A stretch of 64,000 nucleotides of DNA from Owenia fusiformis (Eukaryota; Annelida; Polychaeta; Sabellida; Oweniidae): the NCBI GenBank assembly GCA_903813345.2, contig CAIIXF020000003.1, positions 26,735,248 through 26,799,247 of the forward strand, in the 5' to 3' direction. The notes under the pieces are model-generated. The model did not search any database, had not been told where the DNA came from, and saw nothing but the letters and a program-made list of their open reading frames with translations. The translations under genes were made by a program, and so were the position numbers. Below are positions 17,966 through 62,700 of the stretch, piece after piece (positions within the stretch are counted from its first letter, which is position 1; the number at the start of each line of letters is the position of its first letter).

Positions 17966-18198
17966 ACTTATTTGTCCCCACCAGTTTGCACCGCGCGGGT
18001 CTGACAGTAACCATTTTGAATAGTTCTCCATTTCAATTCCGACCGTTACTTGGTAACCAGTTTGCGCCGCAAGAGCACTTGTCGTTGTTCCTATGAGGCT
18101 TGTGCCTGCTGCTATACCCGCGGAAATTAGTGTAGCAGTAGCACCAAAATCGCGCTTCTCCTCGGAACCAAATTCATAATCTTTCACCGACTTGGCTG
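17966..18198 (-). CDS. Actinoporin-like pore-forming protein, N-terminal helix exon
   Basis: Minus-strand exon of 233 nt between a good acceptor (TTTTTCTTTCAG) and a GTAAAT donor. It encodes a charged leader (VKDYEFGSEEKRDFG), an alternating Ala/Gly/Ile/Leu stretch (TLISAGIAAGTSLIG) typical of the amphipathic N-terminal helix that actinoporins insert into membranes, and the first core strand (QVTVGIEMENYSKW). It leaves in phase 0, matching the exon at 13039. It enters in phase 1, so a further exon upstream, besides the 13-codon leader exon, seems to be missing from this model. Nearby GT sites (17967, for example) are weaker alternatives that would not keep frame with the next exon. Confidence 0.75.
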
Positions 18199-19092
18199 CT
18201 GAAAGAAAAACGTGAACATTGTAAAAGTATGACAAAGTATCATGAAATGAAAACTCCATCATCCGTGAGTCAACTGTCAGGATGTGTGAGCGCACGCAGG
18301 TTTTGAGATATATAGAGAATTCGACAAGGAGGATTAGTTCCCAGTTTTTATAACTCTATATTCGACCTCTGGTTGACCTTGATCGAAAATGTCGTTATTT
18401 TCTGACATTATAACTGACTATGAATTCATAATCAGCGATCAAAAAATGCGAATTAAGGTACAGATGGAAAATAACATTTTGGTAAAAAGTTGCTATACCT
18501 GCACATGTTATTTTCTGGTACACTATACTGTTAAGTATGAAGGCATATGTGTATTTCCTTGCTTTTTTCCGGAAAGTATCATTACATTGTCTTCTTTTAG
18601 TATATCTGATAAAAGGTCAATGGGAACTCCAGGAAATTCTGATTTTTCACACTTTCTATTTCTCCAAAGAACGAATGGCTATAGAAACCCGTGGGGTCAC
18701 TTAACATTTTTTGAAAAATGCAATGTTGTTAACTTCCTCGATATGTAGGATGAAATTGTAGATAAATATGTATATTTTCAAGAAATAACAATAAAAAACA
18801 TTCAAGATTACTGATATAAGTATATTTTGGTTGATTTGGGAGGTATGTATCACTTCCTGTGAAAATATGAATTTTTTATCAGTCCCAGAAAATGTCTCCA
18901 GAATGTATAAACCTAACTTGGCAGATGTCCCATTGTTTGATTGTGTCACTCTATACACTCATTGGATTAATATTTAATTTTGTACATATGAATAGTCATA
19001 TTTCAATAGTCATTGAGTAGGGATTAGTTATGTTTGCAATTGTGTTGACCTACTTATTTTTAGAGAGAGGAAGGTCATGATAAACTCTTCAT

Positions 19093-27168: not shown

Positions 27169-28791
27169 GGTCTCATGGAAGTTAACAGGAAATGACAAAA
27201 CAAAAAATGACAAAGCCATGCTGTATTTTGAAAATTTTTTGAACCAAGATAACAGAGTTCTCTTTGGACCTCCAGTCAGTTTAACTAGTTCCACATATCA
27301 TTTACATGACCGGGAACACAATTGAAATGGTCAGAATGACCATAAACATGATAGAATAACCTTTTCAGCCCTCTGAAAATGTGACTAAAAAAATAGCCAA
27401 GAGTCGGTGCTCAGGAAAGGTCACTGAACAGAATCTTTTGAATTTTTAAGAAAATGTGCCCAATATATTGCTCTAAATGATACAATTTAAAAAAATTTGA
27501 TATCATTCTTAGAAAAAGAAAAAAATGAAAAAATCTGATTTGAAAATCGATCTATTTTCCTTTTTACTCCAGCCATTATTGTTTCAGACGATTTTTAAAA
27601 ATTTCAAAGATTGTATCATTTAGAGCAATATATTGGGCACATTTTCTGAAAAAATCAAAAGATTCTGTTCAGTGACCTCTCCTTAGCACCGACTCTTAGC
27701 TATTTTTCAGTCACATTTTCAGAGGGCTAAAAAGGTTATTTTATCATGTTTATGGTCATTCTGACCATTTCAATTGTGTTCCCGGTCATGTAAATGTAGT
27801 CATATAAATCCGACCGTTATATGCTGTTCTTCGATATTCCTTGTTCCTATTTGGATATTTATTTTTTATCATTTTCTTAGCATATACCGTCGTAGATATT
27901 ATTGCTGACAAATTGCGGTAAACGCTTTTCTGGCTTGTCTTGGTAACCGTAGTTACCATGCTAACCAAAGTCACACAAATTATCGAGTAATTATTTAGCT
28001 CCAACATCAAAGTGTTAAATCTTACCTTAGACATGTAAAACGCTTGATAATTGACGAAATATAATCAATTGAATTATATTTTCATTATCGCCCACCATGT
28101 TGCTGAATGTTGTTTCCGGTAGTCTAAATGTAAAACATGTATCAAAACGGAATCATAATTATTTATTACACAGAGATCGATTCCAAAGCCGTTCTCTCAT
28201 ACTTATTACTTTTCTCATTTTGAAACAATAACTTTTCCAAATAACTTCCCTTCTTAACGACACTGCTTCCCTTTCAACTGATTTTTTCGTGTAACAAGTA
28301 CTTATGATTTCGTTTAACATTGTTTTACATATAGACTCAGATTAACCCGGAAGTGACCTTGGCATGGCAAAATGAAAAAATTTTAAAATCCAAGCGGCAT
28401 GCTTATATTTCTTCAATTACCAAGCGTTTTACGTGTCTAAGGTAAGATTAAATACTTTATAGTTGAAGCAAAGAAATTTATTTATCATTTGTGTGAATTT
28501 GGTTTGGTAGACAGGCCAGGAAAGCATTTCCCGCAATTTAGATGTGCGGAGTGTGTATGACCCTAGTATGCAAGAAAATAAGAAAAAATAAATATCCAAA
28601 TCAGAAAAAATAATAACAAATAACATCATACGAGGGTCAGATTTATATGACTATGTAAATGATATGTGGAACTAGTTAAACTGACTGGAGGTCCAAAGAG
28701 AACTCTGTTATCTTGGTTCAAAAAATTTTCAAAATCCAGCATGGCTTTGTCATTTTTTGTTTTGTCATTTCCTGTTAACTTCCATGAGACC
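27169..28791. mobile_element. TTAA-flanked palindromic element B, sharing a TTAA with element A
   Basis: Ends GGTCTCATGG...CCATGAGACC between TTAA at 27165-27168 and 28792-28795. Arms are homologous to element A. It is interrupted by the insertion at 27797-28653. Confidence 0.75.
27797..28653. mobile_element. Nested element with 8-bp target duplication
   Basis: Inverted ends TAGTCATATAAATCCGACC and GGGTCAGATTTATATGACTA. The 8-bp duplication TGTAAATG lies at 27789-27796 and 28654-28661. An 8-bp target site is typical of hAT elements. Interior about 0.86 kb, non-coding. Confidence 0.75.
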
Positions 28792-30558: not shown

Positions 30559-33500
30559 TACGGAAAGCGAAAGGGGATATACCGCAGAATTTAAAATTCA
30601 ATGGAGTTTTAACATGGGAGTGATATCACACACCGCGGCCCAGTCAGATATATTTCTGCGCACTTTATTTATTTAATTCACTTTGCACAACGCGCCCCCT
30701 GTAATTCATTCAGTGTGCAATTAAAAACTGTTTATGAGTGATATCGCACACCGCGGCCCAGTAAGATCGATTTCTGCGCACTTTATTTATTAACACACTC
30801 AAAATATCGCGCTGAAGCTTGTATATGCTGGCGCGATGTAATTATAGTTTTCTGTTAATAAATGCCCAACAAGAAAGGGTAGCACAACGAATTCAACTTT
30901 TTTCGAAAGACTGCAGACTTGACCTGCGAAAATGTAATTTTGGATCACAGTGATGCCTCTAGAGAGGATATCTATGAGAATAACAGATTATAGTGCGCAG
31001 AATTATAAAGTCAAACTGACCTCAAAATGGTAGTACACATTGTACACTGCCATCTTTCAATAAAGTAACTACAGACCTTCGTATACAAAATACCAGAATG
31101 ATTGATGTAATACCTGTATACCATTTCTTCTGGGAGAAGGAAAGTTCCTATATGTATTCCATGGCCGTAGCCAGGGGGCCTCACCCCCCTCCCCCTTGCC
31201 AAATATTCGTTCAAAATCATGCAGTTTTTCACCATTCTTAGCACTTTTCGCATGATTTTTTTGCCATAACTGTCAAAAACCTCCCCCCTCTTGGCAAAAT
31301 CTCCCCCTTGGTAAAACCACTCCCCCAGGTTAATCCAGGATACGGGTCTGTATTCTTAGACGAGATTGTTCAAGAACATAAGGTAGACATAAGTGCCACC
31401 TGTTAAAATCTAGGAGATCTTTTCTAAGTTATTAAGTCATTAATCAGCAGACTGGTAATTGTATCCCCCACCCACTTCAAACTCCATACACTAACATACT
31501 ATTACAATTTTATCTGTGTTTATTTGACTGTAGAAGGTGTACATTCATAGCATTGAATTGCATTTCATTGCATTGTATTGTATTGTATAGCACATCATTG
31601 TATTGTATTGTACTGCATTTTATTGTATTGCACTGCATTGTATTGTATTGCACTGCATTGTATTCTATTGCATTATATTGTACTGTATTGGAATGTATTA
31701 TATTATATTGCACTGCATTGTACTTTATTGCACTGCATTGTATTGTACTGCAGTGTACTACATTGTATAGCGCTGCATTGTATTGTATTGCACTGCATTA
31801 TAATGTATTGCACTGTACCACATTGTGTTGCACTGCATTGTATTACACTGCATTGTTTTGAATTGCACTGCAATATATTGCACTGCACCATATTGTATTG
31901 CATTGCATTGCAGTGCACTGCATTGTATTATATTGCACTGTATTGTATTGCACAGTATTGAATTGCATTGTCTTGAATAACACTGCATTTTATTACACTG
32001 CGTTGTATTTTATTGCACTGCATTTTATTGTACTGCAGTGTACTGTATTCTATTGCACAGCATTGTTTTGTATTGCACTGTATTGTATTGCATTGTATTG
32101 AATTGCACTGTATTGTATCTTATTGCACTGCATTGCACTACATTGTATTGCACTGTATTGAACTGCGATGTATTGTATTGCACTGTATTGTATTGCACTG
32201 CACTGAACTGCGATGTATTGTATTGCACTGTATTGTATTGCACTGCACTGTATTGAACTGCGATGTATTGTATTGCACTGCATTGTATTGCACTGTACCA
32301 CATTGTATTGCACTGTATTGTATTACACTGCATTACTTTGTATTGCACAGTATTGTATTGCATTGTCTTGAAATGAACTACATTGTAACTGTATTGTATT
32401 TTATTGCACTGCATTGCACTACATTGTATTGCACTGTATTGAACTGCGATGTATTGTATTGTACTGCATTGTATTGCACTGTACCACATTGTGTTGCACT
32501 GTATTGTATTACACTGCATTACTTTGTATTGCACAGTATTGTATTGCATTGTCTTGATTTACACTGCATTTTATTACACTGCATTGTATTTTATTGCAGG
32601 ATAATGTATTGTATTCCACAGCATTGTATTGTATTGCACTGTGTTGTATTGCATTGTATTGAATTGCAGTGTATTGTATTTTATTGCACTGCATTGCACT
32701 ACATTGTATTGCACTGTATTGAACTGCGATGTATTGTATTGCACTGCATTGTATTGCACTGTACCACATTGTGTTGCACTGTATTGTATTACACTGCATT
32801 ACTTTGTATTGCACAGTATTGTATTGCATTGTCTTGATTTACACTGCATTTTATTACACTGCATTGTATTTTATTGCAGTGTAATGTATTGTATTGCACA
32901 ACATTGTATTGTATTGCACTGTGTTGTATTGCATTGTATTGAATTGCACTGTATTGTATTTTATTGCACTGCATTGCACTACATTGGATTGCACTGTATT
33001 GAACTGCGATGTATTGTATTGCACTGCATTGTATTGCACTGTACCACATTGTATTGCACTGCATTGTATTGAAATGAACTACATTGTATTGCACTGCACG
33101 GCATTGTTTTGTACTGTATTGCATTGCACTGCATTGTATTGCATTATATTGCACTGTATTGTATTGCATCGTGTTGCACTGCATTTTATTGTATTATATT
33201 GCACTACATTGTATTGTATCATATTGTTCTGCATTTTTTGCATCATATAACACTGCTTTGTATTGCATCATATTACACTACATTATATTGCATAATATTG
33301 CACTGCATTGTATTGCATCATATTGCTCTGCATTGTATTGCATCATATTGCACCGCATTGTATAACATCATATTGCACCACATTGTATTGCATCATATTG
33401 CACTGCATCGTATAACATCATATTGCACTGCATTGTATTGCATCATATTCCGTATTTACCATTTCGTTACAGTTTTATTACATAAAATGTTATTTATAAG

Positions 33501-34069
33501 ATTATAATTTTCAAACATTGAAAATATTTTATACAATATCAATTAAAAGATATGAAATGGCCCAAAATAATATATTTTCAATGGAACCCTTTGCAAGGGT
33601 CACTTCAACATAACGCCACGTGTAATCTGTATGCATACGCCCTCTTTTAATGAACATTATCTTTGAAACCATATTAGAATCGAATCTGATAAAAGTGCGC
33701 ATGTCCTGGATGTGCTGCGCGCTAGAATCGGGAAATCTCAAAGTTCTCCTCGTTAGAGCCATCAATAATATCCAAAATTGTCATTTCGCTGGTTCACTCC
33801 GCAGTCTTTCGAAAAAAATCAAATTCGTGGTGCCACGAATTTTTATTCGTTATCTCGTTATCTATCCACAGATAATCATTTTTTCATCGCGCACTGAATG
33901 CCGGAATTTCTGCGCACTCTATTTTAATTAACTTTGCACAACGCGGCCCCTGTAATTCATTCAGTGCGCGATGAAATCTATCTGACTGGGCCGCAGTGTG
34001 TGATATCACTCCCATGTTAAAACTCCATTGGATTTTGAATTATGCGCATGTCCCCTATCGCTTTCCGTA
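30559..34069. mobile_element. 3.5-kb TIR element filled with minisatellite, copy 2
   Basis: Same family as 14210-16948: TACGGAAAGCG...CGCTTTCCGTA ends and a different 6-bp duplication, ATTCTA, at 30553-30558 and 34070-34075. The left TIR is rearranged, with the CACACCGCGGCCCAG block present twice. The interior flanks of the minisatellite are nearly identical to copy 1. Confidence 0.8.
31545..33450. repeat. TTGTATTGCACTGCA minisatellite in TIR element copy 2
   Basis: Same unit types and order as copy 1 but about 650 bp longer, through higher-order repeats of about 280-300 bp in the middle (for example the GAACTGCGATGTATTG block recurs many times between 32155 and 33010). Confidence 0.95.
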
Positions 34070-44578: not shown

Positions 44579-44863
44579 TAATTGTACTGAGAATGGATCA
44601 CTGATCGGTAGTATCTCATTCATTCAATATTTGGACACTCATTCATTGTTTATAGGTCCCCGTTGTAAAATTCACAGAAAACCGTTAAAACGAATTTCTT
44701 CCATTGGATTAGAATTACAAAAAAATGATCCCAAAACTACAAGATTCGCCAAATAAAATTACCCCTAGGAAAGGCTTCTATCACAAAAAGAAAGGGTATC
44801 CATATATTTTTCGAATATTCTTATTAAATTTTTTATTACAATATGTTTTGCTCGATGTTTTAG

Positions 44864-45645
44864 GGATGGCTGCGGACATTATGGAATTGTTTGAGACATT
44901 CCAAGAAGATGCCGTGAAATACAACAGACTACTTGTGATCGTTGTGCTCTCTTTGTGGACGGCGAGTCTTCTACAGTTCGCACTTGTAAAAACAGCCACC
45001 AAAAAACCGACGAAGCGAAATGGCAGGACGGATTTGTCTTTAGATGAAATGGCAGGTGCTCCTCTTCAGGAGATTTTCATGGAGAAAAATCAACCGAAGC
45101 GTACAAATTGTTTTGAGACTGAGATTTGGTCTATTTTATCCACTATTTACCTCCAAGACGGTCCCTTTCTTGTACTACGTCTTATTTTGATAATTCGTTA
45201 CCGGGTCCTTAGCTACATGAATTTCTTCTTCACGTGTAAAAATTCACTTATCATAGTCCTCCAGATTTACCGCATCATGGCCATATGTACGAACACTCCA
45301 GATTTGAATGACTCTACGGCCGAGAGTACTCCAAGAGCAAGACGGAGAAATTTCGTAACTGGAGCAAGTATGGGCTATTCAACTGATAGTGAAACGACAC
45401 CTTTTCGACCTGCAAAAGGCCCAAAAAGGCAGAAGAGCACAATGGACTTAACCTCTGATACCGATAACATACCGTTGAATCGACCCAAACGCAGAGATCC
45501 ACCGGAAGTGTTTGAATATGATAACTCACCAGCATCGAGAACCGCTATGACTTCACCAAAGGGTAGAAAATACATGTTAGATCAACATAAATCCAGTTTG
45601 GACAAAGAAATGGGTTCTAGAGCATACCATCCCACAATCCACTGA
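44864..45645 (+). CDS. TMEM26: TMEM26-like membrane protein, last exon
   Basis: Follows acceptor GATGTTTTAG. Joined in phase to the exon ending at 44555 it restores the family motif LLVFIGMAADI across the junction. It carries a membrane segment (LVIVVLSLWTASLLQFAL), the family hallmark LQDGPFLVLRLIL, a further hydrophobic segment (NSLIIVLQIYRIMAI), and a long polar, phosphorylatable tail to the stop at 45645. TMEM26 is a multi-pass plasma-membrane protein of poorly known function. The gene is convergent with the Reeler/anaphylatoxin-like gene; stops are 3.9 kb apart. Confidence 0.85.
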
Positions 45646-48600: not shown

Positions 48601-49538
48601 TACAAATATATTATGTACAAAAACATGTTATTTACATATATTACAAAATATCTAAAGCAATGGGTCACATCCAAATTAGTCTTCAGCCAAGTTCATATTT
48701 TTGAATGTTTTGTTAATAAAACACTCAACTTGTTTTGGACGTATTTATCTTTTGAAGACATTCAGGTTGATTTTTATCAAGATTAATTTTGCTGGTGATG
48801 TTCTCAAACACCATTTTTCTATTTTCTTGGTGCGTTTTGCCAATTAATCACGAAATCAATTTCATTTACTATACCTCCACAAAAGTAACATAATCTTTCA
48901 TATTCAGGGTTAGCCTTGGTTCTCATATCTACCCAGCTCTATTTAGAGTCTATGAGAACTTCAATCTCAGTCGGGTAAAGGATTGCCTATGATTTTTTCT
49001 CTGGAGGAGTCACTATTGCACACTTTCAAAAGTAATCAGAACTGGATAAAATTGTAAATCACACTTCCATTTGATACACTTTTAGGTAAAACTTGTATGA
49101 ATACATATAGTCATCTTCGGCAATTTGTTCATACCAGTTAAAATTAAGATTAGAATCTTTTAAAGTGTTATAAACCTTACTTTTCAACGTATCGTCAAAA
49201 CCTAAACTCTGCATTTCGGTAGTCATATACATGTTATGTAGAAAGGATTTCCTTAGACAATAAGCCCAATCCAATATTAAATAATTGAATATCCAAACAT
49301 ATTCTTATGGGTAATGACCCAGCTTTTCATAAACTGCTAATGCATTTGGTGTTTTCACATCAAGAATGTTTTTAAAAGTAAAGGTGAATAGTTTCAAAGT
49401 ATGTAGTACCATTTTAATTTTGTAGATGGAGCATTGTATTGTATAATAAAACCTGTAAAGTGGAACACTATTTATCTTGGAGGTGTTCAACTCACACAGG
49501 TTTTACTTTATCTCAGATCGATAATGTCAGATATATTC
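45646..49538. other. Convergent intergenic region between TMEM26-like and Reeler/anaphylatoxin-like genes
   Basis: Presumably holds both 3' UTRs. 46260-46460 is a degenerate tandem repeat built on TTTCGATATTTTCGA. 46540-46800 is a GC-richer interspersed repeat (GCTAACCCTAACGCCCGATAAGAGG). No further gene recognised. Confidence 0.45.
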
Positions 49539-49650
49539 TTAATAATTCTCTTCACCCAGGTCATCCATGTCATACATGTCCTCATATGAGTAGTCATCTG
49601 TGGTTGTAGCTGTAGGCTTAGGGGTTGTAGGTGCCGTAGTTGTTGTTGTC
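49539..49650 (-). CDS. Exon 20: Thr-rich, acidic Tyr tail and stop
   Basis: Terminal exon: a TTTTTAPTTPKPTATTT run followed by DDYSYEDMYDMDDLGEENY and TAA at 49541-49539. Four Tyr lie among Asp/Glu residues, the usual context for tyrosine sulfation in secreted proteins (inference). Confidence 0.75.
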
Positions 49651-52600
49651 CTGAAATTGACAAGGGATAACTTTAAAAGTGAACTTCATTGATGTATGAA
49701 GAACTGAAATTACGCAATGCTGGTACACAGTTCAATACATTTGTTTTATTGAAAGTGTGAACTGTCTCAAGAAGATGAACATAAAAACTAAATAAGGTCC
49801 ATCAAAGGATTAGGCTGAGCAAATGTTTTCATAACACTTTAAAAACAAAAGTGTACCCATGTTTCCTCAATTCCAAAATAGACCGACGAAAGTTCTTTTT
49901 TCACTTACCTCGGTTCGTAACTACAACATTTTTTGAAGCTGAAGAAACAAATCCTCTTTGCGAATGGTCCAACTCTCTTTAGTCTCTTCAAGAAGCCAAA
50001 TGCATCACTCTTGCAGACTGCTATCTCGCTGGTATTCTCCTTTCTGGCCTGCATGCGTCCTGTTCTACAACATTTTCTCTTCAGTAGAGGTATTTCTGTA
50101 ATATAAATTGTTGTTCATTGATTGAAAGACATTGAATAGTATTGCATTGTAGAATTACATAGGATACTGTTCACAATATATTTTATGGGCGACAATCGTG
50201 TTTCAACCAGTGATTATTTGCTCTATTAGTTATTTCTTGATTTTAACTTCTCAGAAATTATCATTATATCAGTGTGTGTCAGACTGACACGATGTTCTAT
50301 TATGAATTATTGTCATTTCTTGATTAATTGTATCATTCTTCAAAATCTTACTTTTTCCTTTACGTCTACGATGTTGTTCTTTCTTATGTTCACGTCCCGT
50401 GTCTTTCTGTATTCTCTCTTCTTCCTGTTCATCATCTGTGTCATCAGCTTCCAGCTCAGCAACACTTTCCTTTTCTACCTGCTCTACATCGGCATCACTG
50501 ATCTCACCTCCGGAGAACTCAATTTCAGAGATTTCATTGGCAACTTCCTCTAAATCTTCTTCCTAATTAAAAGTAAATGCAACTGTCTAAATGTGCGTTG
50601 AAATTAAAAAAAGGACGATATCAAATTATTGTTAATAATTAACTAATTATGTATATCAATACACCTTACCTCTTTGGTAGTCTTGTACATTGTAACTGTG
50701 GCGATCACTGGTTTAACTGTTGTTGTCGGTAGTCTGTAAAAAATAAAATTCAACATTTTTATTCAAGATTAACAATAAGGGGGTTGCCCAGAAACATTAT
50801 GTTTACTGTAAGATATGGTTAAATGATTTGCAATTATTAGCCTGAAAATCGTTAATTTCAACATTGCAAACAAATTCCCAAATGATGACTTTCTTATCAC
50901 TAATATGCCAAGTTCATATTATTTTAGTGATTCTTTACATTTATAAGGAAGAAGTTCTTAGTTTTTTTTAAAATAGGATAGAGGTGCCAAAAATTTACAA
51001 AATTGTTTTCTTATACTGTTATTTTGTTTCCCAATTTGGGAAATAATATTCGTACATCATTTTGGTGATAAAAAAATATTATCAAGTTCAAAATAATAAA
51101 GCTTACCTTGGAGGAGAAATTTTGCTGCAGCATTTATTGAATGATATGAAACAAATTCTCCTGGCCATTCCTGCCAACTTTCTGAACTTCATGACAAAAT
51201 CTTTGGCTCTGTTCCTGCATACTGCAGTTCTCTTGCTCTTCTTTGCAATGATGAATCCTGCTCTGCAGCAGTAATGCTTCAATATCTTTGCTGAAATGGA
51301 TATGAGTATATAAAGTTGATTTAATCGGAGTGATGGAATATGAATTTTTAGGGAAATGATCAAGGAGAATATCATGTCGATAGGGCGACAGGATTTTGAC
51401 TTGAATATTGATTCTATTTTCTGCTTATTTCCAAGGATAACACGTTATTATGGGATGAATACAGTTATATTGTGTCATATTTCCTCACCACCTGAAACAT
51501 GTTATAATTGTTAATTTAATTGCCTGTAAGTATTCAACCAAACCTTAATGTTTTAACATGAACCTTTCCAATAAGCAACTTATTAATAAGGTTTTTTGAT
51601 TTTTTAAAGCTGATCCTTCTCACCTCTCCCTCTTCCTCTGTGTCTTGGGTGGTTTTTATGTTTTCGTATCATGACCCGTGGTTTTTTCACTTCCTTACTA
51701 GAGTCAGCATCATCGCTGTCACCATGAGAGACCTCAACTCTCTCATTAAGTTCATCAACTGTGTCATCTTCCGCTTCTTTTAGATCATCTATCGTTAGTT
51801 CATCCTCGGAGAATTCTAGTTCATCAATTCCACCCATAACAATGTCAATGGAATTATATAATTCTTCGTTGGAGCCTGAGAAGGATATTTCTGTTGAGGA
51901 TTCTGATGTCGTAACAGTTGAAGGCATATGAGTAGGAGATGAAGTAGGTGTTGTTGTCCTGAAATTGTCAAGGAATCACTTTAAAAGTAAAAATAATTGA
52001 TACGTGAACTGAAACGACTCGGGAAATTCCGATACATAGCTAAATGCATTGGTTCTACTGAAAGAGTAACCTATTGTACAAGATCAGACTGAGCAAAGGT
52101 ACTCTAACTAAGTAAGATAGATTTCAATACGTTTTCCAATAAAAAGAGGTTTAAAATTGACACGATTGTTTCGTTTTGCTGTTTGCTATTTATGTTGTTT
52201 CCTAAACTGGGAAATAATATTCACACATCATTTGGGTGACCTAAAAATGATAATCAAATATAAAATATCAAAGCTTACTTTGGAGGTGAAATTTTACTGC
52301 AGCATTTATTGAATGATATGAAACAAATTCTCCTGGCCATTCCTGCCAACCTTCTGAACTTCATGACAAATTCTTTGGCTCTGTTCCTGCATACTGCGGT
52401 TTTGTTGCTCTTCTTTGCTATAATGAATCCTGCTCTACAGCAGAAATTCTTCAATAGCTTTGCTGAAATAAAAAATAAATGTATATAACTATATTGTGTC
52501 ATACTTCATTACCATTTGAAACGTATTACTATTGTTTATAATTGCATTATAAGTCTTCAATTATTGTTTCTGATTTGTTGATCTTACACTAAGTGTTTTA

Positions 52601-55600
52601 ACATGACCTTTTCGAATAAGTAACTTATTGATTAGTTTTTTTTGATTTTTTAAAATTAATCCTGCTCACCTCTTCCCCTTCCTCTGTATCTTGGGTGGTT
52701 TTTATGTTTTCGTCTCATGCCTGATGGTTTCTTTATGTCCTCACTGAGGTCATCTTCATCGCTGTCAATATCAGTGATCTCGACACTCTCATCAAGCTCA
52801 TCAACTGTGTCGTCTTCCGCTTCTTTTAGATCATCTATAGTTAGTTCATCCTCTGTGAATTCCAGTTCATCAATTTCATTCATCACAATATCAATGGAAT
52901 TATCTAGTTCGTTAGAGGCTGATAAGGATATGTCTGGTGAGGATTCTGATGTGGTTGTAGTTGTAGGCTTATGGGTAGAAGGTGTAGTAGTTGTTATCCT
53001 GAAATTGTCAAGGAATCACTCTAAGAGTGAAGATAGTTGATACATGAAGAACTGAAGGGACTCGAGAAATGCTGATAAATAGTTCAATACGCAGGTCCTA
53101 CTGAAAGTGTGAACAATTTCAAACAGTTGAACAATGAAAACTGAATAAGATGCATCAAAAGATCAGGCTTAGCAAAAGTGCTCTCATTCTTCAACATAAG
53201 GAGCTTGACTTTAAAAATATTAGTATATCCATATTTCCTCAAATTAGATCTGGGGGCGATTTTTACACTGTAGCTAACAATTCTTAGATAAAATCTCTGC
53301 TTTTAGTTCATAACTTGACACTAAATCCTAAGTTACAGCAATTCCAAAATTAGACCCACCTAGGTTCATAATTACAACATTTTTTGAAGCTGAAGAAACA
53401 AATCCTCTTTGCGAATGGTCCAACTCTCTTTAGTCTCTTCAAGAAGCCAAATGCATCACTCTTGCAGACTGCTATCTCGCTGGTATTCTCCTTTCTAGCC
53501 TGCATGCGTCCTGCTCTACAACATTTTCTTTTCAGCATAGGTATTTCTGTAATACAAAATATCGTTCATTGAGTGAGACACTATATTCTAGGATAATATT
53601 AGAAACAGTTACTATAAGTTTCACTGACATGTACCTTTCAATCACTGGGGATTTGTTATGCCATTAAACTTGCTTACATTCCATCGGTTTTTTATTTTAA
53701 TTCCTCGAAAATTATCACAACATTAATGCTTGTCGGTTCGACTGACAATGTGTGTTAAATGCCATATTTTTAATTATTGTTACTTCTTAATTGAATTATA
53801 ATTCTTTCAAACACTTACTTTTTCCTTTACGTCCATGATGGTGTTCCTTCTTATGTTCACCCTTAATTGGTCGTCTCGTATCTTTCTGTATTTTTCTCTC
53901 TTCTTGTTCATCATCTGTGTCATCAGATTCTAGCTCAGCAACACTTTCCCTTTCTGCCTGCTCTATATCGGCATCACTGATCTCACCTCCGGAGAACTCT
54001 ATTTCAGAGATTTCATTGGCAAATTCTTCTAAATCTTCTTCCTAATTAAAAGAAAATGCAACTGTCTAAATGGGCTTTAAACTTTGAAATGAATTTAAAA
54101 AAGGCTAATTCGAATTATGTAATGCTAGAAGGACTGTTCCACTTTAATTTATTCCTGTTGTTGTCTGGCTCGCTGAATACAATCTAACCTTGATTGGTAA
54201 TGATTGTAAAACTCATTTGTTCATAGGTGAAATGAATTATATATCATCTTATATCAATACACTTTACCTCTGTTGTAGTCTTGTAGATTGCAGTTGCTGT
54301 GTTTGATGGATTAACTGTTATTGGTGTAGGCCTGTGAAAAATAAAATTCAATTATTTTTATTTAAGATTAACTATTGTAAGATTTTCGAGAAGCGTCTAC
54401 TTTATTGAGAGGCTTTACTTTACATATAATTAAACATGATAAAAAATGGTTGAATAATTTGTAATGATTAGCCTAATAATGGTAAAATTTAACCTTAAAA
54501 GCAGCCTTTCCAAACTGAGAAATATATTATATCAGTTAAGTGACAAAAAATCATTATCAAATTTAAAATACCAAGGCTTACTTTGGTGGTGAAATTTTGC
54601 TGCAGCATTTATTGAATGATACGAAACAGATTCTCTTGGCCATTCCAGTTAACTTTCGCAACTTCATGTCAAAACCGTTGGCTCTATTCTTGCACACTAC
54701 AGTTCTCTTGCTCTTCTTTGCTGTGATAAATCCTGCTCTGCAGCAGTAATGCTTCAATATCTTTGCTGAAATAAATATCAATTAATGTAATTAATTATAT
54801 TATGTCATATTTCCCGAAGCATGTTCTTATTGTTCATTTTAATTGCACTTTTAGTTTCGTACTCTTGTTTCTGATTTGTCAATTTACACGATGCAATTTT
54901 TATTTTGTGAATTGAACCTGCTCACCCATTCCTCTTCCTCTTTGTCTTGGGTGGTGATTATGTTTTCGTCTCATGCCATCAGTGGCCCCAACACTTTCAT
55001 TAAGTTCATCAACTGTGTCATATTCTGCTTCTTTTAAATCATCCATCGTTAGTTCATCCTCGGAGAATTCCAGTTCATCAATATCATCCACCACAACGTC
55101 AATGGCATTATCAAGTTCTTCGTCGGAGGTTGCTGATATTTCTGATGAGGATTCTGCTGATGATGACCTAGATGATGATCTGGATGTTAGTGAGTCTTCA
55201 GATTCTTTCGAGTACTTGTCAGAACTCTCCTTTCTCCATCGAGTGTTAGTCATTTTAGCGTTAGCCTTCCATTCTTGTTTGGTGTCATTGAAGCAGTCAT
55301 AACGATCCTCACCTGGACAAATGGATAATTCAAGACACGTTCATGTGTATTCTGTTTATAACATGAATATACAAACCTACTTTGAAAGTTGTTCCTTATT
55401 AGAAATACTTTTTGTCTCGTTCCAAAATTTACAATTGATTAAGCCAGGATGTTTAGTTAGGTGTATTCTCTAGATAGTAAGCAAATACCACAACATACAC
55501 ATTACTTGGGTAAAACAATGGTTTACTGCGTATGCCCGGGTTAAAATTAGTTGTATAGGTGTTAACTGTTTTACCTTTAAAGTCGCAGCATTTTTCAATT

Positions 55601-58600
55601 GCAATATTTAGGCTGGGCTTGATCCATCTTCCACTATTTGTAGGTAGTCCCTTCTCGCACATCATGTCTACTCTCCGTTCCTTTAGATCTTGGAAACAAT
55701 ACAATCGTGCATTATCAGCCTACAACATCATATTAATGTCCATTAATGTTTTAAAATGAATTATGTAATAGATTTTAAAAGATGAAATAAAATGACCGTT
55801 ATTCACTTATTACATACAATCAACAAGTCAGTCAGTCAGTACATAAGTTTATATGTAAGCGTCTTTATCTTTAGTTATAACACCACATACCTGAGCACAA
55901 CATTTTTTGGTAGCATTCAGATTTTCCTGAGCTATCTCTTCAATGTCTGTCCCTTCATCCCCATCTAACTTTGCCCAGAACTGTTCAATACGGTGCCACA
56001 TGACTTTCCATCCCCATCGATTTAAGGTACCCATCTCTATGTCACTTTCCTCTCTAATCTTTGAACACATGTGCTCCACTCTTTCACTCCAGTCTTTGCT
56101 TCTCTAAAATGAATATTACAATGTATATAATTATATCAAATCAATGAGCAGAAACAATTTTTGAACCAGCCATCCATCAATGTCTTGCAAGATGCCTCAT
56201 CAGCAAAATAGCCAAGTTGCTCAAATGTGTACAAAATACTTAATTTTCATAGGTTTACTTACATACATCAGACAGATTGATTATTATTTTGATATGTACC
56301 TCATGGTGTCTGTGTCCTTGTCTCATTCTTTGTCCCCTGTGTGGTTGTAATTTTCCCATAACTGGTTTAAAGACCCTTTTGACTGCCTGTATACCCCGTT
56401 CTATATTTCTCCTCATTCCACCAGGGTTGCCATTGCCAGTCCTTTTTATCGTACCCTTTGCATTGTCTAAATGTGTTTTAACTGTTTTGTCAACCATTGC
56501 ATCCTCATCATCATCCACGTCATAATGTGATTCCTCGTCATCAAGGCCAATCATTTCCTTTTCATCACTCTGTACATCTGGGTCGTTGACATCATCAGTC
56601 ATCGGAGACGGTACAACATGATTGACAGATTTCTTTGGTATTTTGGGCTCACCTACGATATAAAAAGCGGTGAACATGAATTTCTTTCTTTCGGCAAAAT
56701 GTACCTTAATTCCAGCAGTGAAGAAATGATGTTTATAAATAATATTGATAGAAATGGTGGGCAAAATTATTTGTATTAAAATCTGCATATTATATGATAG
56801 AGTATATCTTTGAAAACAATAAAGAAATGACATTGCAATGACATGGCATATAATGGCGATGCATGAATTAAATCCTGGAGCCAAGTCACAACTCCATTTA
56901 GAATTTCAATTACTTTATGGCCCGCTAGACCATGTATAATTTTGAAAAGGATGAAGCTGTATAGATAAAATGTAGCTTAGATTGTGTAAAAAGATAATAT
57001 TCGATAAAGTATCGTATTATTTTAAGTATCGTATTATTTTTTACCTTGTATACACACTCTCTTTGTTAAATGGTCATCGTTGGCAAAGTGACTGGCCTCA
57101 TCGTCTGAGATAATAACAGCGCTGAAATCAAACATCATGGAGATTAATATTGTATGAGATCATATTCAATGAAATTGGCATCGATGGATGGATCATAATA
57201 AATGGAGATAGCATACAACATATCACACTCAATGAAAATAATATTAAGTTTTTAAAGAACTAGAATTATCAATCTAAAAATATATGAAAATTAAAATTAT
57301 TTTCATATGAAATGCTTCATGAAAATATTGTAAAAAGGATTTGTACATTCTTAATACCTTAATCTGACACATCCACATTCAGGAGTCGTCCATCTAATTG
57401 TTATTTTGGAGATTTGCTTTTTATTATCACCTCGATTTGTAATCATAAAGGGACATTCATCCAATGAGTGATACTTGTCATACGGCTTCTGGCGGAAATT
57501 GCCGAAACCACAAACTTTATCTTCGGACTCGGAGACCAGTCGAAATTTTAGGAAAGACTTCTTTGGGTTAAGAGATCTAACAGCAACTACAAATATACAA
57601 CATAAGTTAAGTACAAAATGTATATTTTTACATAAAGCAATAATCCATTTACACAAACATATTTCAAGTATATTTGATAAGAACATATTAGCAGTATCAC
57701 CGTCTTCAGTATTTTTGTCATCATCATTACAGGTCATTCGAATCTATCATGAAGCACAACAGTTTTTACTTTATTTCACGATAATTCCCCGATTTGAAAG
57801 TCACCTATATCTGACAAAGAATATGGATGGCCATCTGCTTTCTCAATTTTAATAAATTTGAACATTGTTGCATTTTAAATCTTCAGTTTTCAATATATTA
57901 TATGATAAGATTATCTCAATTTTGTTTTTAATACAAGAATCTAGTGCAAAAGATATGTTTTCAACTTGTGTAATCAATTCCCGTCATTTCATTGGCCTTA
58001 CAAAAGGAACTTTCAGAAGAATAATCAGAATGGCAGAAATGAACAAACCTTTAACATCCCAGACAATGACCTGGGTGACATTTGAAACATTGTCCAAGTA
58101 GGCAAACTGAATGACTTACCATTGTATTCTTTTAATGGCATGAGCTCCTCTCCAGGCTTTGTACCATAGATTATCAGGTCATACATGGGAGTATTAATTC
58201 TCCACAGTTTGTTTTCCTCGGGCTTCGAGTATTCTGGTACACGAGGGGGACATTGTGCAATTACTGGAATAAAGAATATAGTTTATTAGAAAGCTATTAC
58301 ACCGTTTTGGAAACAGTTTTTACACCACTCCAATGCGGATCCGAGGAATTCATTTAAAAAACACTATTAATGCATTTACAATACGATACTCGCTGTAGTT
58401 TTATGAAAGGTTCTTGATCCGAAGTCATTGTTTACTTGAAGAACGGTGCTTTCTAGCTACTTTGAAGTCAATTGTGACTACAGATATAAACGCACACAGT
58501 ATAAACGTAGGTTACTTGGTGTATCATATGTAGATTATTTGCACTGATTCAAACCGATGTTCTCACAGTCGATACCCACGGCTCCGGTTGGGATGTAATT

Positions 58601-59577
58601 TAATTTTGTTTGTTAATTTTTATTTATTTATTTGCCATACACTTTTTAAACAGTGGCACAATCGAAAAGTTCCAGTGCGGCGGTACATATACAACAAATC
58701 ACATTAAAGACATAATCACATTAAAGACATAAAATTCAATGCAGATAAGTAACATATTATGTTAAATTGTACACATGTTATGAATTTAGAATATCGTTAT
58801 TAACGGTTACTTAATTTTTTTGACACACTTGTGGAACAAGAAACCATTTACTTCATCCCAGGGCTCTTCTTTTATAGCTTTGATATTAAGAATGACATCA
58901 AATTTGAAGCAAACACTGATCTGGAATACAAGTTTCTACTTGCTAGTGTTTTAAAGAAATGATTGTTGTTGATACAATTATCAGGATTTCTTGCCAGACT
59001 CAACTGAGGACAAAAGTAAGCGGAGAAAACTTATCATTGTACCAATAAATGCTCGATACTAATGTTATGGAAAGAAATGAAGTTGGTTAGATTTATATAA
59101 TATCGAAATATCATTTGCTCCCTCGAAAAGTCGATTGCACGTTGATAAAACGGGTACATCTACGAAAATGAGCTGACACCCCACATCAAGTGACAAAAAA
59201 CAAGGAATATCAAAAAAAAAAAAACAATAAAAGAAACATTAAAGAGAATAATCATTCAAATGTAAAACAAACCACAAATATCCCAAAATGTATCTCCTTG
59301 AATGTGAAGAAATGTCGGATTATACTTTTTGTATACCATTCCAAAATGTTATCACAATTTAAACCACTCGACCTTATATGAAGAACAAAGTAAAAAAAAA
59401 TATTCATTTTGTGCCATCGACAATAGTTGTAGATACTTTTGTAGTATACAAGATATAACAGTCTTCGTTTCAAGTAATGATTCAAAGGTTCAACATCAAA
59501 ACAGAATGCTTACGTCGCATAATTTGCTTACCTTGCTGAATGACTATAAGACACATTGCCAAAGTTATGGACCCCAT
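49539..59577 (-). CDS. Secreted Reeler / albumin-like / 5x anaphylatoxin-like protein, complete 20-exon gene
   Basis: Gene model built by reading splice sites on the minus strand. Exons: 59577-59532, 58263-58120, 57586-57358, 57121-57045, 56652-56300, 56103-55891, 55719-55575, 55312-54926, 54765-54582, 54331-54268, 54041-53819, 53546-53360, 52998-52670, 52462-52279, 51958-51624, 51290-51107, 50733-50670, 50562-50352, 50095-49909, 49650-49539. All introns are GT-AG, all 19 junctions agree in phase, and the coding length is 3,858 nt (1,285 aa plus stop). Order: signal peptide (1-15), Reeler-like domain (about 18-165), acidic then basic linker (166-283), albumin-like cysteine domain (about 284-415), then five basic CC...C...C...CC modules (about 533-592, 690-750, 862-921, 1035-1094, 1188-1248) between acidic linkers, and an acidic Tyr-rich tail. 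No membrane segment is seen after the signal peptide, so it should be secreted. Function is not known; Reeler and anaphylatoxin-like domains suggest defence or extracellular matrix. The exon model is strong; domain names rest on visual pattern matching. Confidence 0.85.
49909..50095 (-). CDS. Exon 19: anaphylatoxin-like module 5 (type B)
   Basis: 187 nt, nearly identical to exon 12 in protein (KRKCCRTGRMQARKEN...CFFSFKKCCSYEPR). The near identity at DNA level suggests a recent duplication or gene conversion. Confidence 0.65.
50352..50733 (-). CDS. Exons 17-18: Thr-rich segment and acidic linker
   Basis: Exon 50733-50670 (64 nt, RLPTTTVKPVIATVTMYKTT) and exon 50562-50352 (211 nt, EEDLEEVANEISEIEFSGGE... 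ending KKEQHRRRKGK). These are copies of exons 10-11; exon 18 is 12 nt (four codons) shorter than exon 11. Confidence 0.75.
51107..51290 (-). CDS. Exon 16: anaphylatoxin-like module 4 (type A)
   Basis: 184 nt. CCRAGFIIAKKSKRTAVC, a 21-residue basic gap, then CFISFNKCC. The closest relative is exon 14. Confidence 0.65.
51624..51958 (-). CDS. Exon 15: Thr-rich acidic linker
   Basis: 335 nt. It opens with KTTTPTSSPTHMPSTVTTSE, continues with the shared acidic block (IDELEFSEDELTIDDL) and ends RKHKNHPRHRGRGR, a dense basic stretch directly before the next cysteine module. Confidence 0.75.
52279..52462 (-). CDS. Exon 14: anaphylatoxin-like module 3 (type A)
   Basis: 184 nt, same phases as exons 9 and 16. 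Cysteine frame CCRAGFIIAKKSN...C...C-FISFNK-CC. Few changes from the other two type-A copies. Confidence 0.65.
52670..52998 (-). CDS. Exon 13: Thr-rich acidic linker
   Basis: Starts with a mucin-like Thr/Pro run (TTTTPSTHKPTTTTTSE), a candidate for O-glycosylation. It then carries the acidic block IDELEFTEDELTIDDL and ends basic (KHKNHPRYRGRGR). Paralogous to exons 8 and 15. Confidence 0.75.
53360..53546 (-). CDS. Exon 12: anaphylatoxin-like module 2 (type B)
   Basis: 187-nt exon. The module begins KRKCCRAGRMQARKEN and ends RICFFSFKKCCNYEPR, with the same CC...C...C-x6-CC frame as type A but a distinct sequence subfamily. Nearly identical to exon 19, which has the same length and phases. Highly basic. 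Confidence 0.65.
53819..54331 (-). CDS. Exons 10-11: Thr-rich segment and acidic linker
   Basis: Exon 54331-54268 (64 nt) gives a short Pro/Thr segment (KPTPITVNPSNTATAIYKTT). Exon 54041-53819 (223 nt) gives an acidic block (EEDLEEFANEISEIEFSGGE...) ending in basic HHHGRKGK just before the next cysteine module. The pair recurs as exons 17-18 (64 and 211 nt). Confidence 0.75.
54582..54765 (-). CDS. Exon 9: anaphylatoxin-like module 1 (type A)
   Basis: 184-nt exon (phase 1 in, phase 2 out) encoding CC-x15-C-x21-C-x6-CC with the CCRAG start and CFVSFNKCC end. The anaphylatoxin signature has CC-x(2)-[GAP], a central C and C-x(6,7)-CC. The gap between the third and fourth cysteines is longer here than in C3a or fibulins, so I call it anaphylatoxin-like. 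The module is very basic (many Lys/Arg, few acids). Exons 14 and 16 have exactly the same length and close sequence. Confidence 0.65.
54926..55312 (-). CDS. Exon 8: end of albumin-like domain and Ser-rich acidic linker
   Basis: Begins GEDRYDCFNDTKQEW, completing the preceding cysteine domain. It then runs into an Arg/Ser stretch (SLTSRSSSRSSSAESSSE), a strongly acidic block (IDELEFSEDELTMDDLKEAE) and a basic end (MRRKHNHHPRQRGRGM). The acidic block is repeated nearly unchanged in exons 13 and 15, so this exon is the founder or a copy of the linker unit placed before each type-A cysteine module. Confidence 0.75.
55575..56103 (-). CDS. Exons 6-7 (running into exon 8): albumin-like cysteine domain
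   Basis: Exons 56103-55891 and 55719-55575, with the last cysteine in the start of the next exon. The cysteine order is C (EHMCSKIRE), about 50 helical residues rich in Trp, CC-x9-C-F (KKCCAQADNARLYCFQDL), x12-C (MMCEKG), x22-CC-x8-C-F (EKCCDFKGEDRYDCFNDT). This C...CC-xn-C...C...CC-xn-C arrangement with helical spacers is the serum-albumin/ECM1-type half-domain pattern. Exon 6 is phase 0 at both ends. It could instead be an unnamed helical cysteine domain. Confidence 0.55.
56300..56652 (-). CDS. Exon 5: acidic-to-basic linker
   Basis: One 353-nt exon, about 118 residues without cysteine. The first half is very acidic (DDVNDPDVQSDEKEM, then a run of Asp/Glu around YDVDDDED). The second half is very basic with many Arg/Lys/His and ends HRGQRMRQGHRHHE. 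Likely an unstructured spacer; the basic tail could hold proprotein-convertase sites, which is inference. Confidence 0.75.
57045..58263 (-). CDS. Exons 2-4: Reeler-like domain
   Basis: Three exons (58263-58120, 57586-57358, 57121-57045) encode about 150 residues that fit the Reeler (Reelin N-terminal) domain: an opening QCPPRVPEYS, a central Tyr/Lys-Pro-Gly-Glu stretch (YGTKPGEELMPL), a VCGFGNFRQ strand, DECPFMITNRG, and the typical closing strand KITIRWTTPECGCVRLR, which matches the W-x-x-P...GC/V-x-F/L-R ending of the family. Reeler domains occur in spondins, reelin, DOMON/ferric reductase proteins and small invertebrate defence proteins. The exon edges are AG|/GT with matching phases 1, 2 and 1. 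Confidence 0.7.
58560..59190 (-). repeat. Possible 3' fragment of a non-LTR retroelement in intron 1
   Basis: Read on the minus strand it ends with GGCAAATAAATAAATAAAAA, the short tandem tail common to CR1/L2-like elements. No clear coding remains. Confidence 0.3.
59532..59577 (-). CDS. Exon 1: signal peptide of the Reeler/anaphylatoxin-like gene
   Basis: Starts with ATG at 59577-59575 and encodes MGSITLAMCLIVIQQ, a short hydrophobic leader, before a perfect GTAAGC donor in phase 1. This ATG was chosen because it opens directly into a signal-like segment, lies about 140 bp downstream of a TATA box on the same strand, and its phase fits exon 2. Confidence 0.75.
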
Positions 59578-59714
59578 ACTGGATGTTACGTCCGTGAGCG
59601 TCGTGATCTTGAATGTTGACGTTCGGTAAATCACTGCTTTTGTTCTTGCTGCAGAGTGTTCTTTGGCTCAGATCGTCTGTCGCTGTTGTGATACTCTTTA
59701 ATCTGACACTTCGA

Positions 59715-59722
59715 TTTATATA
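59715..59722 (-). promoter_or_regulatory. Candidate TATA box of the Reeler/anaphylatoxin-like gene
   Basis: Read on the minus strand this is TATATAAA, about 140 bp upstream of the chosen ATG. It predicts a start site about 30 bp downstream and a 5' leader of roughly 110 nt. No other core element was recognised. Confidence 0.45.
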
Positions 59723-62700
59723 CAGTTGTAGACAGTGATGTCACTCTGAATTATCATGTAATTCGAAGAACTGAGGATAGAAGTCATAAGCCGTTGTGTG
59801 ATAACAATGTAAATGTTGAACTAAAGTGCCCTTTATCAATGCCATAATCTCAAATACTTTTAAAAATTAGGAAGTAGTCAGATTCTAGGATTTTAAGAAG
59901 AGGTCAGGTTCAATAGTGATAATAAATAGTTTCATCTAGAATATCAAAATGTTATTGGGGGCTGTTTTTTTAATTTTATTTCAATCATAATCCGCAGTCC
60001 AATTCCAATTACAAAAAGAAAAAATACAAAAAATTAAGAGATCAAAACTTTGTATACGTTGCGTTAATTGAATTTGGCTAAGCCTATGCTGTCTCTTGCA
60101 CATGTATTTGTATATTGATGCTTTTCTAAATCTTATTTTGAAGGATCGTTTCAAAATTAAGATGGCTGAAACTCTCAAAAAAGAGGACGCAGTTTTATTG
60201 CACATTATACCGTACATAAAAAAGCTAACTGCAAGATGTTTGCTGAGGACAAATATTTTCTATATTTACGACTTGTTGGCAGCAATGGCCAGCGGGTACT
60301 TAGATTTGGTCCCCGGTGGTCATTGACCCCCGGACGGTAACAGAGATACAAGGTACAGTGATCAACATAATACATACTCAAATCCATTGCACCTGGGCCC
60401 ATCATTTTAATCAAATTGTCTAGATATAGATAGATAGTAATTATCTGCATTATAGATACATTCATGTTTTAAACAATTTTGAATGCCCAGCTGTGTTTGA
60501 GTAATTCTTATGGAACGGAAGCCCGTATTAGAGAAAGAGATAATTTTGAAACAATTAAAGGCAATAATCGAATGGTCAATTGTTATCACTTAATAAATGG
60601 TTATCAATAATCAAATAAAATGTTTACAATAACGGGACAATGGCAACGCTACGGAGTAGCATATCCAATTGATGAAGGCGATACAATAACATCCTTGGTC
60701 CAAGGGCATTTCACTTCTTTCCTGAATTGAGGAATAAATGAAGTCCTTTGAATGAAGGATGATACAATAATCGTTACTCTAAAATAAATGCTTATTGTAA
60801 ATATGATTAGTTCGAAGCGTTTTGCCGGTTAAGTTGAAAACATTTATTTCTATTTGTTCATGTGTTATTCATTTAGGGTGCGTAATTTTCAAAATTCATC
60901 ATTTTTTCTTTCACTTATCTTTGCCTTGGTGTAAACTATTGCATATATTATTACTGTATGTGTGACAACCAGCATTTTCGAACTTTTCGAACGAAAAGTA
61001 CATAAAAACAACATTTTGAAATTGAAACATTTTGTAAGACTACAATATTAGCCAAAGTTGTTTGACTTTTACATGGGACCTTTAATGAATGTTTTCTTAA
61101 TGTCGGCCTAAAAGCATTGATTGAATTTGCATGAACAAAATGCAACATACCTATCTCTAAATGTAATATTCCTAGAGGATAAATTTTACCATTTCATATA
61201 ATCATGTCGCGTGATAATGCATTTCCATTAAATACAAGAGCAAGATCGGCCCACTCATGCTTGAGTTACAATCAAGACGGACAGACTGACGGAGTGCATT
61301 TCTTTAACCGTACCGAACGCTTGACATTCCGCTTCAGACAAACAAGTACATCGTGCAGCCTGCAGGTGTTCAACTTCAAAGTGATATATTACCATTTACT
61401 ATCTATGTACACCACTTGAAAGATCATAACTATTACGTTAACACTGATAACTGAGAACCAGTGTTAGTTCTAAGAATAAACATAATATTAAACACATTAC
61501 AATACGTATTATCTAATATATTTTATTTATTTACTAATTTGTTTGCTCTCAATATTTATGACAGTGGAGAATGAAAGTTATCAATGCGGCAGAGTGATAG
61601 AGATCCAATTGTGAGAGTAACCATTAGAATACATTTAAAAAGTTAACAAACTGCATACATAAAATACGTACATGTATACTCCAAGCGACCGCCCTCCCCT
61701 CCCCCTTTACCAAAAAATATTTTTTTATACGAGATTGGTATTTAACTATGCAAACATGGCTCTAAGGTATGCTCAAAATGTACCGGAGAGGATCTAAATT
61801 TCCTTTTTACGCTTTGAGTGGGCGTATCATAGGCACAACCCATCCGTAGGCAAAATCGCCCCCCCCCCCCCCCGATGCACATTTGAAGTCAGGCAAAACA
61901 TTTTAGGCCTTTAAAACCAACAATTGTTGAAAGGATCTGTATCTATTAGTGAATTCGAACCTATAAGAACTTTGAAAATTATTAAAAAAGGTAAAATGGA
62001 ATTCCAAAATTGTTTTTATGCAATTTGAATCTATTAAGTTTATTTTCAACAAATCACAAAATCAGTGTGGAAAATATGGTAAAAAAAGGTGTTTTTAACA
62101 ATGGTCATGTTGACTCTTCAAATGAGTAATTTTGACATATTTTCACAGAACCTTGATCAAAATCTTGGGTTTTGTAGATTTTGTAGACTTTATTTCACTT
62201 GTCAATATAAGAAATACAATGTGTCCTAATCTTCAAGCTTCATTTCATGTGCCATTCATGCATAAATAGTAAGTAATCCCATCGTACTGGTTGTAAGCAG
62301 TGAATGACCTTCTCCCGACAGATTAAGGTACTTCCACAAACCAGGCCCCTCTGAATTTACCTTCATTGTTTAGTATTGACACTATTTTATAATTCAAACA
62401 TGAAATAAGAGAGGGTCCTAAGTGTGGAAGATAAACAATATTAAAGTATAGCAAAAATTTTAGTTTCAAAAAGGAGGCCATATTGAAAGTGCCATGCAAG
62501 AATCCATTCTGTCTTGAATGTATTGCTTTAGGTAGGTGCAACATAGAACCTTCTACAAAAATAGAAAATCTTATTTGGAAAGATATTCTGGACCGAACCT
62601 TCATTTACAATAACTATTGTGTCAACGTTTCACTCCACAGAGACATCCAACCTGGGTTCCCATAGATAATTCTGAGCATCATGTTCAAACCTCTAATCAG
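59723..62700. other. Upstream flank of the Reeler/anaphylatoxin-like gene; no gene seen
   Basis: Only short open frames without family resemblance. 61680-61910 includes C-rich tracts of the dispersed GCCCTCCCC type. Confidence 0.4.

What the first reader, a model, noticed from the sequence alone, without database searches (positions are those of the whole stretch)
49539..59577. Undescribed architecture: Reeler + albumin-like + five anaphylatoxin-like modules in one secreted protein
Seen directly: a complete 20-exon open gene whose exon junctions all agree in phase, with a signal peptide, Reeler-type closing strand, a C/CC/C/C/CC/C albumin-like block and five CC...C...C-x6-CC modules. Established: Reeler domains occur in spondins, reelin and invertebrate defence proteins, and anaphylatoxin domains in complement C3/C4/C5 and fibulins. 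I know of no protein joining these three. Inference: a lineage-specific secreted defence or matrix protein.
Basis: partly seen in the sequence, partly recalled or inferred. Interest (0 to 1): 0.88.

Follow-up and report, generated by a model that had tools for sequence, protein, structure and literature searches.

The report
Worm protein with repeated cationic modules
A gene, very probably of a marine Owenia worm, encodes a secreted-looking protein that joins a Reeler-like and an albumin-like part to five positively charged, cysteine-rich modules resembling the complement fragment C3a, each preceded by an acidic spacer of similar opposite charge; it may be a store of releasable defence peptides, but its function is untested.

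Summary
A 20-exon minus-strand gene (59577 to 49539) gives one 1,285-aa frame with GT-AG introns and agreeing phases. P0001, an unnamed Owenia fusiformis protein, has the same order of parts and runs across 18 of 19 exon junctions. It is the only homologue that three searches found, and has two modules where the window has five, A-B-A-A-B. The source is very probably an Owenia annelid.

Domain names are partly supported. The albumin-like block hits Pfam Serum_albumin at E 7e-6, below cutoff. The Reeler-like part hits Spondin-1 at E 0.003, not Pfam Reeler. The modules have the anaphylatoxin cysteine order, but longer loops, no Pfam match and weak fold evidence.

New here: each module exon (net +12 to +16) follows an acidic spacer exon (net -13 to -19), and 7 of 7 modules end at one Lys or Arg. 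Modules evolve under purifying selection. I favour a charge-masked precursor of C3a-like peptides; a polyampholyte tube or mucus protein is the main rival. Function is untested.

The parts
59532..59577 (-). exon 1: start codon and signal-peptide-like N-terminus (MGSITLAMCLIVIQQ...)
   Evidence: P0001 begins the same way
57045..58263 (-). exons 2-4 (58263-58120, 57586-57358, 57121-57045): Reeler-like domain, aa about 19-165
   Evidence: phmmer to Spondin-1 Reeler structures E 0.0032-0.004, two-sequence profile E 0.0086-0.011; no Pfam Reeler match reported
56300..56652 (-). exon 5: acidic block (net -13) followed by cationic block (net +11)
   Evidence: same order, longer, in P0001
55575..56103 (-). 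exons 6-7 (56103-55891, 55719-55575), with the start of exon 8: albumin-like C/CC/C/C/CC/C block, aa 284-432
   Evidence: Pfam Serum_albumin E 6.9e-6, 26.3 bits, cutoff 34.4; 0 of 8 cysteine-fixed shuffles match it
54926..55312 (-). exon 8: end of albumin-like block, Ser-rich stretch, acidic spacer (whole exon net -16), basic tail
54582..54765 (-). exon 9: anaphylatoxin-like module A1, net +15
53819..54331 (-). exons 10-11 (54331-54268, 54041-53819): Thr-rich linker, then acidic spacer (net -14) with basic tail
53360..53546 (-). exon 12: module B1, net +12
52670..52998 (-). exon 13: Thr-rich linker, acidic spacer, basic tail (whole exon net -19)
52279..52462 (-). exon 14: module A2, net +15
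51624..51958 (-). exon 15: Thr-rich linker, acidic spacer, basic tail (whole exon net -13)
51107..51290 (-). exon 16: module A3, net +16; the AlphaFold model is of this module
50352..50733 (-). exons 17-18 (50733-50670, 50562-50352): Thr-rich linker, then acidic spacer (net -16) with basic tail
49909..50095 (-). exon 19: module B2, net +12
49539..49650 (-). exon 20: Thr-rich linker, acidic C-terminus (net -8) and stop
   Evidence: near-identical end in P0001
59716..59722 (-). TATATAA, possible core promoter 145 bases above the ATG
   Evidence: consensus match only

Best explanation
SHOWN: one intact gene, very probably of an Owenia annelid, encodes a 1,285-aa protein with a signal-like start, a Reeler-like domain, an acidic/cationic segment, one albumin-like double-cysteine block, and an array of five units of two related types (A-B-A-A-B). 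Each unit is an acidic spacer, a basic tail, a 61-62 aa strongly cationic six-cysteine module and one Lys or Arg, next to a Thr-rich or Pro/Thr-rich stretch. INFERRED: the modules are disulphide-tied, mainly helical, C3a-like peptides. The acidic spacers neutralise them during storage and secretion, as acidic prosegments do in antimicrobial-peptide precursors (recalled). Trypsin-like or proprotein-convertase cleavage at the basic borders would release cationic peptides that damage microbes or call haemocytes, while the Reeler-like N-terminus would hold the precursor at a microbial or matrix surface. Neither cleavage nor activity is shown.
For: Gene and architecture. Charge: spacer exons 8, 11, 13, 15, 18 net -16, -14, -19, -13, -16; module exons 9, 12, 14, 16, 19 net +15, +12, +15, +16, +12. 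Variance of 50-aa net charge is 106 against a shuffle mean of 17 and a maximum of 34 in 2,000 shuffles; P0001 gives 111 against a maximum of 36. Each of 7 modules (5 window, 2 P0001) follows a basic tail and ends at a single Lys or Arg, although types A and B differ between the last CC and that residue. Modules are under purifying selection (dN/dS 0.17-0.26 in four like-type pairs; the A1/B1 pair gave no ratio), spacers less so (0.27 for the B pair; 0.38, 0.41 and 0.69 for the A pairs). AlphaFold gives three helices. From papers: recombinant Reeler proteins inhibit Vibrio growth in shrimp work (PMC12113285, abstract and passages); a Reeler protein was found in a library of immune-challenged Platynereis, an annelid (PMC1939704, passages); the C3a-like subunit of bivalve C3-like proteins acts in chemotaxis and phagocytosis (PMC8960428, abstract and passages).
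Against: Only 2 strict RX[KR]R furin motifs occur and both lie inside B modules, so border cleavage needs another protease. Module amphipathicity is not exceptional: the 18-residue maximum is reached by 11-28% of shuffles. The modules fail ANATO on loop length and Pfam. The structure rests on one model of five (pLDDT 73; the others 39-42). The units share ancestry, so the charge pattern is not five independent observations. No expression or infection data were seen. The search for papers on acidic propeptides in multi-copy precursors gave 1 listing, on a fish hepcidin, so that analogy is from recall.
Confidence: 0.38

Rival explanations
1. A structural polyampholyte of tube, mucus or cuticle: alternating acidic and cationic blocks, Ser-rich (possibly phosphorylated) spacers and Thr-rich (possibly O-glycosylated) linkers drive charge-mediated condensation, and disulphide modules add stiffness; no peptide is released.
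For: Block charge alternation; 13 S-x-E motifs in the window protein and 25 in P0001; long Ser-rich and acidic runs in P0001. Owenia lives in a tube (recalled; PMC4375521 on tube-dwelling polychaetes holds the name 12 times, listing only). Sabellariid worm cement uses oppositely charged proteins (recalled).
Against: Modules are more conserved than spacers by dN/dS, whereas a purely electrostatic role would mainly need composition. Reeler-like and albumin-like parts are not known to me from worm cements (recalled). No tissue data.
Confidence: 0.3
2. An extracellular-matrix adaptor that works like fibulins or ECM1: Reeler-like, albumin-like and ANATO-like parts are docking modules and the spacers are flexible linkers.
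Confidence: 0.2
3. The Reeler/albumin part and the repeat part are two neighbouring genes joined wrongly in both the reader's model and the P0001 model.
For: No transcript evidence was available here; both models could share a prediction bias.
Against: Phases agree through 20 exons and exon 8 itself carries both the end of the albumin-like block and the first acidic spacer; P0001 is colinear. In the published O. fusiformis annotation 31,678 of 31,903 transcripts have RNA-seq support (PMC9977687, passages), but whether P0001 comes from that annotation, or is one of those transcripts, was not seen.
Confidence: 0.05

Closest known systems
P0001, unnamed protein of Owenia fusiformis (annelid)
   Same: Same signal-like start, Reeler-like domain, acidic/cationic segment, albumin-like block, A and B units and C-terminus
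   Different: Two modules (A-B) instead of five; 26 extra aa between exons 4 and 5 and a much longer acidic, then Trp-, Pro/Arg- and His-containing cationic segment in the exon 5 region; one extra cysteine in the albumin-like block
Anaphylatoxin (ANATO) modules of C3/C4/C5 and fibulins
   Same: Six cysteines in the order CC-C-C-CC, CCxxG, C-x6-CC; three predicted helices
   Different: Loops of 15 or 17 and 21 residues, outside the recalled PROSITE pattern in 7 of 7; no Pfam ANATO match reported; no A2M, EGF or fibulin domains reported
Serum albumin family and ECM1
   Same: Two C...CC-x9-C motifs (positions) and a Pfam Serum_albumin hit over profile 32-130 of 176
   Different: Part of one domain only, below the curated cutoff, in an annelid; albumins have three domains (recalled)
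Reeler proteins (spondins, insect and shrimp defence proteins)
   Same: Query residues 58-150 align to the Spondin-1 Reeler domain, including its last strands up to LTK-x-C
   Different: No Pfam Reeler match reported; joined to albumin-like and ANATO-like parts
Multipeptide antimicrobial precursors with acidic prosegments (recalled class)
   Same: Cationic cysteine-rich units separated by acidic spacers
   Different: Modules of 61-62 aa, ANATO-like, behind a Reeler-like/albumin-like N-terminus; processing not shown

Membership tests
Anaphylatoxin domain (ANATO) | six cysteines in order CC-C-C-CC with C-x6-CC | tested here: met
   7 of 7 modules (5 window, 2 P0001)
Anaphylatoxin domain (ANATO) | loop lengths of the PROSITE signature (pattern written from recall) | tested here: not met
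   0 of 7 modules match; spacings 15 or 17 and 21
Anaphylatoxin domain (ANATO) | match to the Pfam ANATO model | tested here: not met
   not reported for any of 7 modules scanned singly with max E 10 (5, 2); the filters drop most matches above about 0.1
Anaphylatoxin domain (ANATO) | helical bundle fold | tested here: inconclusive
Complement C3/C4/C5 | alpha-2-macroglobulin, thioester and C345C domains | tested here: not met
   none reported by Pfam for either full protein
Fibulin | EGF array beside the ANATO modules | tested here: not met
   no EGF reported by Pfam for either full protein
Serum albumin (PF00273) | paired C...CC...C motifs and profile similarity | tested here: met
   E 6.9e-6 for the segment, 3.7e-5 for the whole protein; P0001 2.4e-5; 0 of 8 cysteine-fixed shuffles match
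Serum albumin (PF00273) | score above Pfam's curated cutoff (34.4 bits) | tested here: not met
   24-26.3 bits; by sequence no PDB match at E up to 1, one serum albumin at E 4.4 with a two-row profile
Reeler | sequence similarity to solved Reeler domains | tested here: met
   three Spondin-1 sequences at E 0.0032-0.004, next match 0.89; weak
Reeler | match to the Pfam Reeler model | tested here: not met
   not reported for the window protein, P0001 or their N-terminal segments with max E 10
Antimicrobial-peptide precursor | proteolytic release of active cationic peptides | not testable with these tools
   only basic borders and charge blocks seen

The most novel reading that the evidence does not exclude
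An annelid lineage has evolved a complement-independent reservoir of C3a-like peptides: a Reeler/albumin-headed polyprotein whose A- and B-type anaphylatoxin-like modules are kept latent by charge-matched acidic spacers, released with a C-terminal Lys or Arg as vertebrate C3a is with its Arg, and multiplied by unit duplication.
Probability: 0.22. Interest if true: 0.82.

Novelty: new variant of a known kind. Interest (0 to 1): 0.6.

Why it matters
If right, it shows anaphylatoxin-like peptides delivered by a dedicated polyprotein instead of by cleavage of C3. Whether annelids keep C3 is disputed: PMC8960428 reports its loss in representative annelids (passages), while PMC11312191 reports C3 in Annelida (passages). 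It would also be an albumin-family-like block in an annelid. Even under the rival reading, alternating charge blocks with disulphide modules would be an unusual biomaterial. In the held open-licence library no paper has both 'reeler domain' and 'anaphylatoxin'.

Tried and rejected
Homologues beyond Owenia: three protein searches gave P0001 alone (1 of 6,743 candidates; 1 of 799; none of 20). They see only proteins of 0.55-1.75 times the query length that share exact five-residue words. Sequence search of solved structures with single modules and the five-module profile found nothing; the albumin-like segment found nothing useful. Pfam Ribonuclease_P matched 2 of the 5 window modules (A2, A3; best E 2e-4) and the A module of P0001 (E 0.0019), below its cutoff, and not A1 or the B modules; I take it as chance likeness of a basic stretch. 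Whole-P0001 AlphaFold was poor (pLDDT 43) and was not searched. Foldseek on the module gave nothing better than E 1.3. Amphipathicity was not exceptional. The window protein has no other match in the window outside 49000-60000 at E up to 0.01. The 26-aa insert of P0001 was not found between exons 4 and 5. Paper searches: 'albumin-like domain' with 'invertebrate' gave 0 papers; albumin superfamily/ECM1/evolution gave 1,034 papers, 12 listed, nothing usable in the listing; Owenia with albumin gave 18, listing only; C3a with antimicrobial gave 56, 12 listed, not read; fibulin with domain shuffling gave 3, not read.

Full report
OBSERVATION. The minus strand from 59577 to 49539 carries 20 exons. 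I listed splice sites and spliced them: 3,858 nt, 1,285 codons and a stop, GT-AG at 19 introns, no internal stop. Upstream there is a TATATAA at 59722 and downstream GATAAA at 49512 and 49476; these are consensus matches only.

INDEPENDENT SUPPORT. A search of about 5.8 billion proteins returned one homologue among 6,743 candidates: P0001, an unnamed 1,044-aa protein of the annelid Owenia fusiformis on a 37-Mb contig. It aligns at 65.9% over 621, 78.1% over 338 and 70.2% over 242 columns, gaps counted, in the three main blocks. With ten residues on each side of each junction placed on P0001 without gaps, 18 of 19 junctions keep 5 to 10 identities on both sides, repeated units being matched to the same P0001 place; junction 4/5 does not, as P0001 has 26 extra residues there. 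The window is therefore very probably from Owenia, as a paralogue of P0001 or as the gene of a close relative; I could not tell which, because the tool for the window's own genome did not complete. The published O. fusiformis assembly is 505.8 Mb with 12 chromosome-scale scaffolds, and 31,678 of 31,903 transcripts have RNA-seq support (PMC9977687, passages); whether P0001 is among those was not seen.

UNITS AND SELECTION. Modules fall into type A (exons 9, 14, 16) and type B (exons 12, 19). Compared with A3, the other A modules are 89% and 84% identical and the B modules 42%. The acidic spacers are also alike between types (alignment), so the repeating unit is spacer plus basic tail plus module. 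P0001 has A-B; the window has A-B-A-A-B. Introns of the duplicates still align. dN/dS is 0.17-0.26 for four like-type module pairs (the A1/B1 pair gave no ratio), 0.27 for the B spacers and 0.38, 0.41 and 0.69 for the A spacers.

CHARGE. Spacer exons carry net -16, -14, -19, -13 and -16; the modules that follow carry +15, +12, +15, +16 and +12 (exons 8, 13 and 15 also hold other stretches). The variance of 50-aa net charge is 106 in the window protein (shuffle mean 17, maximum 34 of 2,000) and 111 in P0001 (shuffle maximum 36). The units are related by descent, so this is one design kept, not five inventions. Each of 7 modules ends at a single Lys or Arg beside a Thr-rich or Pro/Thr-rich stretch, though the residues between the last CC and that position differ between A and B.

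MECHANISM. I favour a latent precursor: acidic spacers mask cationic disulphide-tied modules until trypsin-like cleavage at the basic borders frees them with a C-terminal Lys or Arg; a C-terminal Arg is conserved in C3-like ANATO domains (PMC8960428, passages). Shown: the gene, its relative, the charge blocks, the borders, the selection. Inferred: masking, cleavage, activity, targeting by the Reeler-like part. Against it: only two strict furin motifs, both inside modules, and ordinary amphipathicity. A polyampholyte tube or mucus protein is nearly as likely; a fibulin-like adaptor comes third.

LITERATURE. In the held open-licence library no paper has both 'reeler domain' and 'anaphylatoxin'. 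Recombinant shrimp Reeler proteins inhibit Vibrio (PMC12113285, abstract and passages), and a Reeler protein was found in a library of an immune-challenged annelid (PMC1939704, passages). Two papers disagree on C3 in annelids.

VERDICT. A real, uncharacterised architecture so far seen only in Owenia; its domains are distant relatives or look-alikes of known families; function open. Interest 0.6.

Noticed in passing
12614-13057 (-) and 17912-18355 (-): Possible exons of an actinoporin-like pore-forming protein; the first matches Pfam Anemone_cytotox at E 1.7e-4, below its cutoff; the second was placed by eye and had no Pfam match.
   Followed up: partly
44713-45645 (+): Long open frame matching Pfam Tmem26 at E 3.1e-37.
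   Followed up: partly
2222-4217 and 7284-9277: Direct duplication of about 2 kb at 99.3% identity that contains an array repeating at 42-base offsets (Tandem Repeats Finder was not run).
   Followed up: no
14387-16948 and 30831-34069: Two long stretches of related simple-repeat-like DNA, 82-88% identical in the longest matches, open in several frames.
   Followed up: no
27299-27796: Stretch of about 500 bases that matches its own reverse complement at 86% (palindrome, possible fold-back element).
   Followed up: no
P0001 residues 231-510: The Owenia relative has a long acidic run, then a Trp-containing cationic stretch and a Pro/Arg/His-rich stretch that resembles proline-rich antimicrobial peptides by eye; much of it is missing in the window gene.
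   Followed up: partly
A2 and A3 modules, 52279-52462 (-) and 51107-51290 (-): Short likeness to the RNase P protein (Pfam, best E 2e-4, below cutoff), not shared by A1 or the B modules; probably chance.
   Followed up: partly
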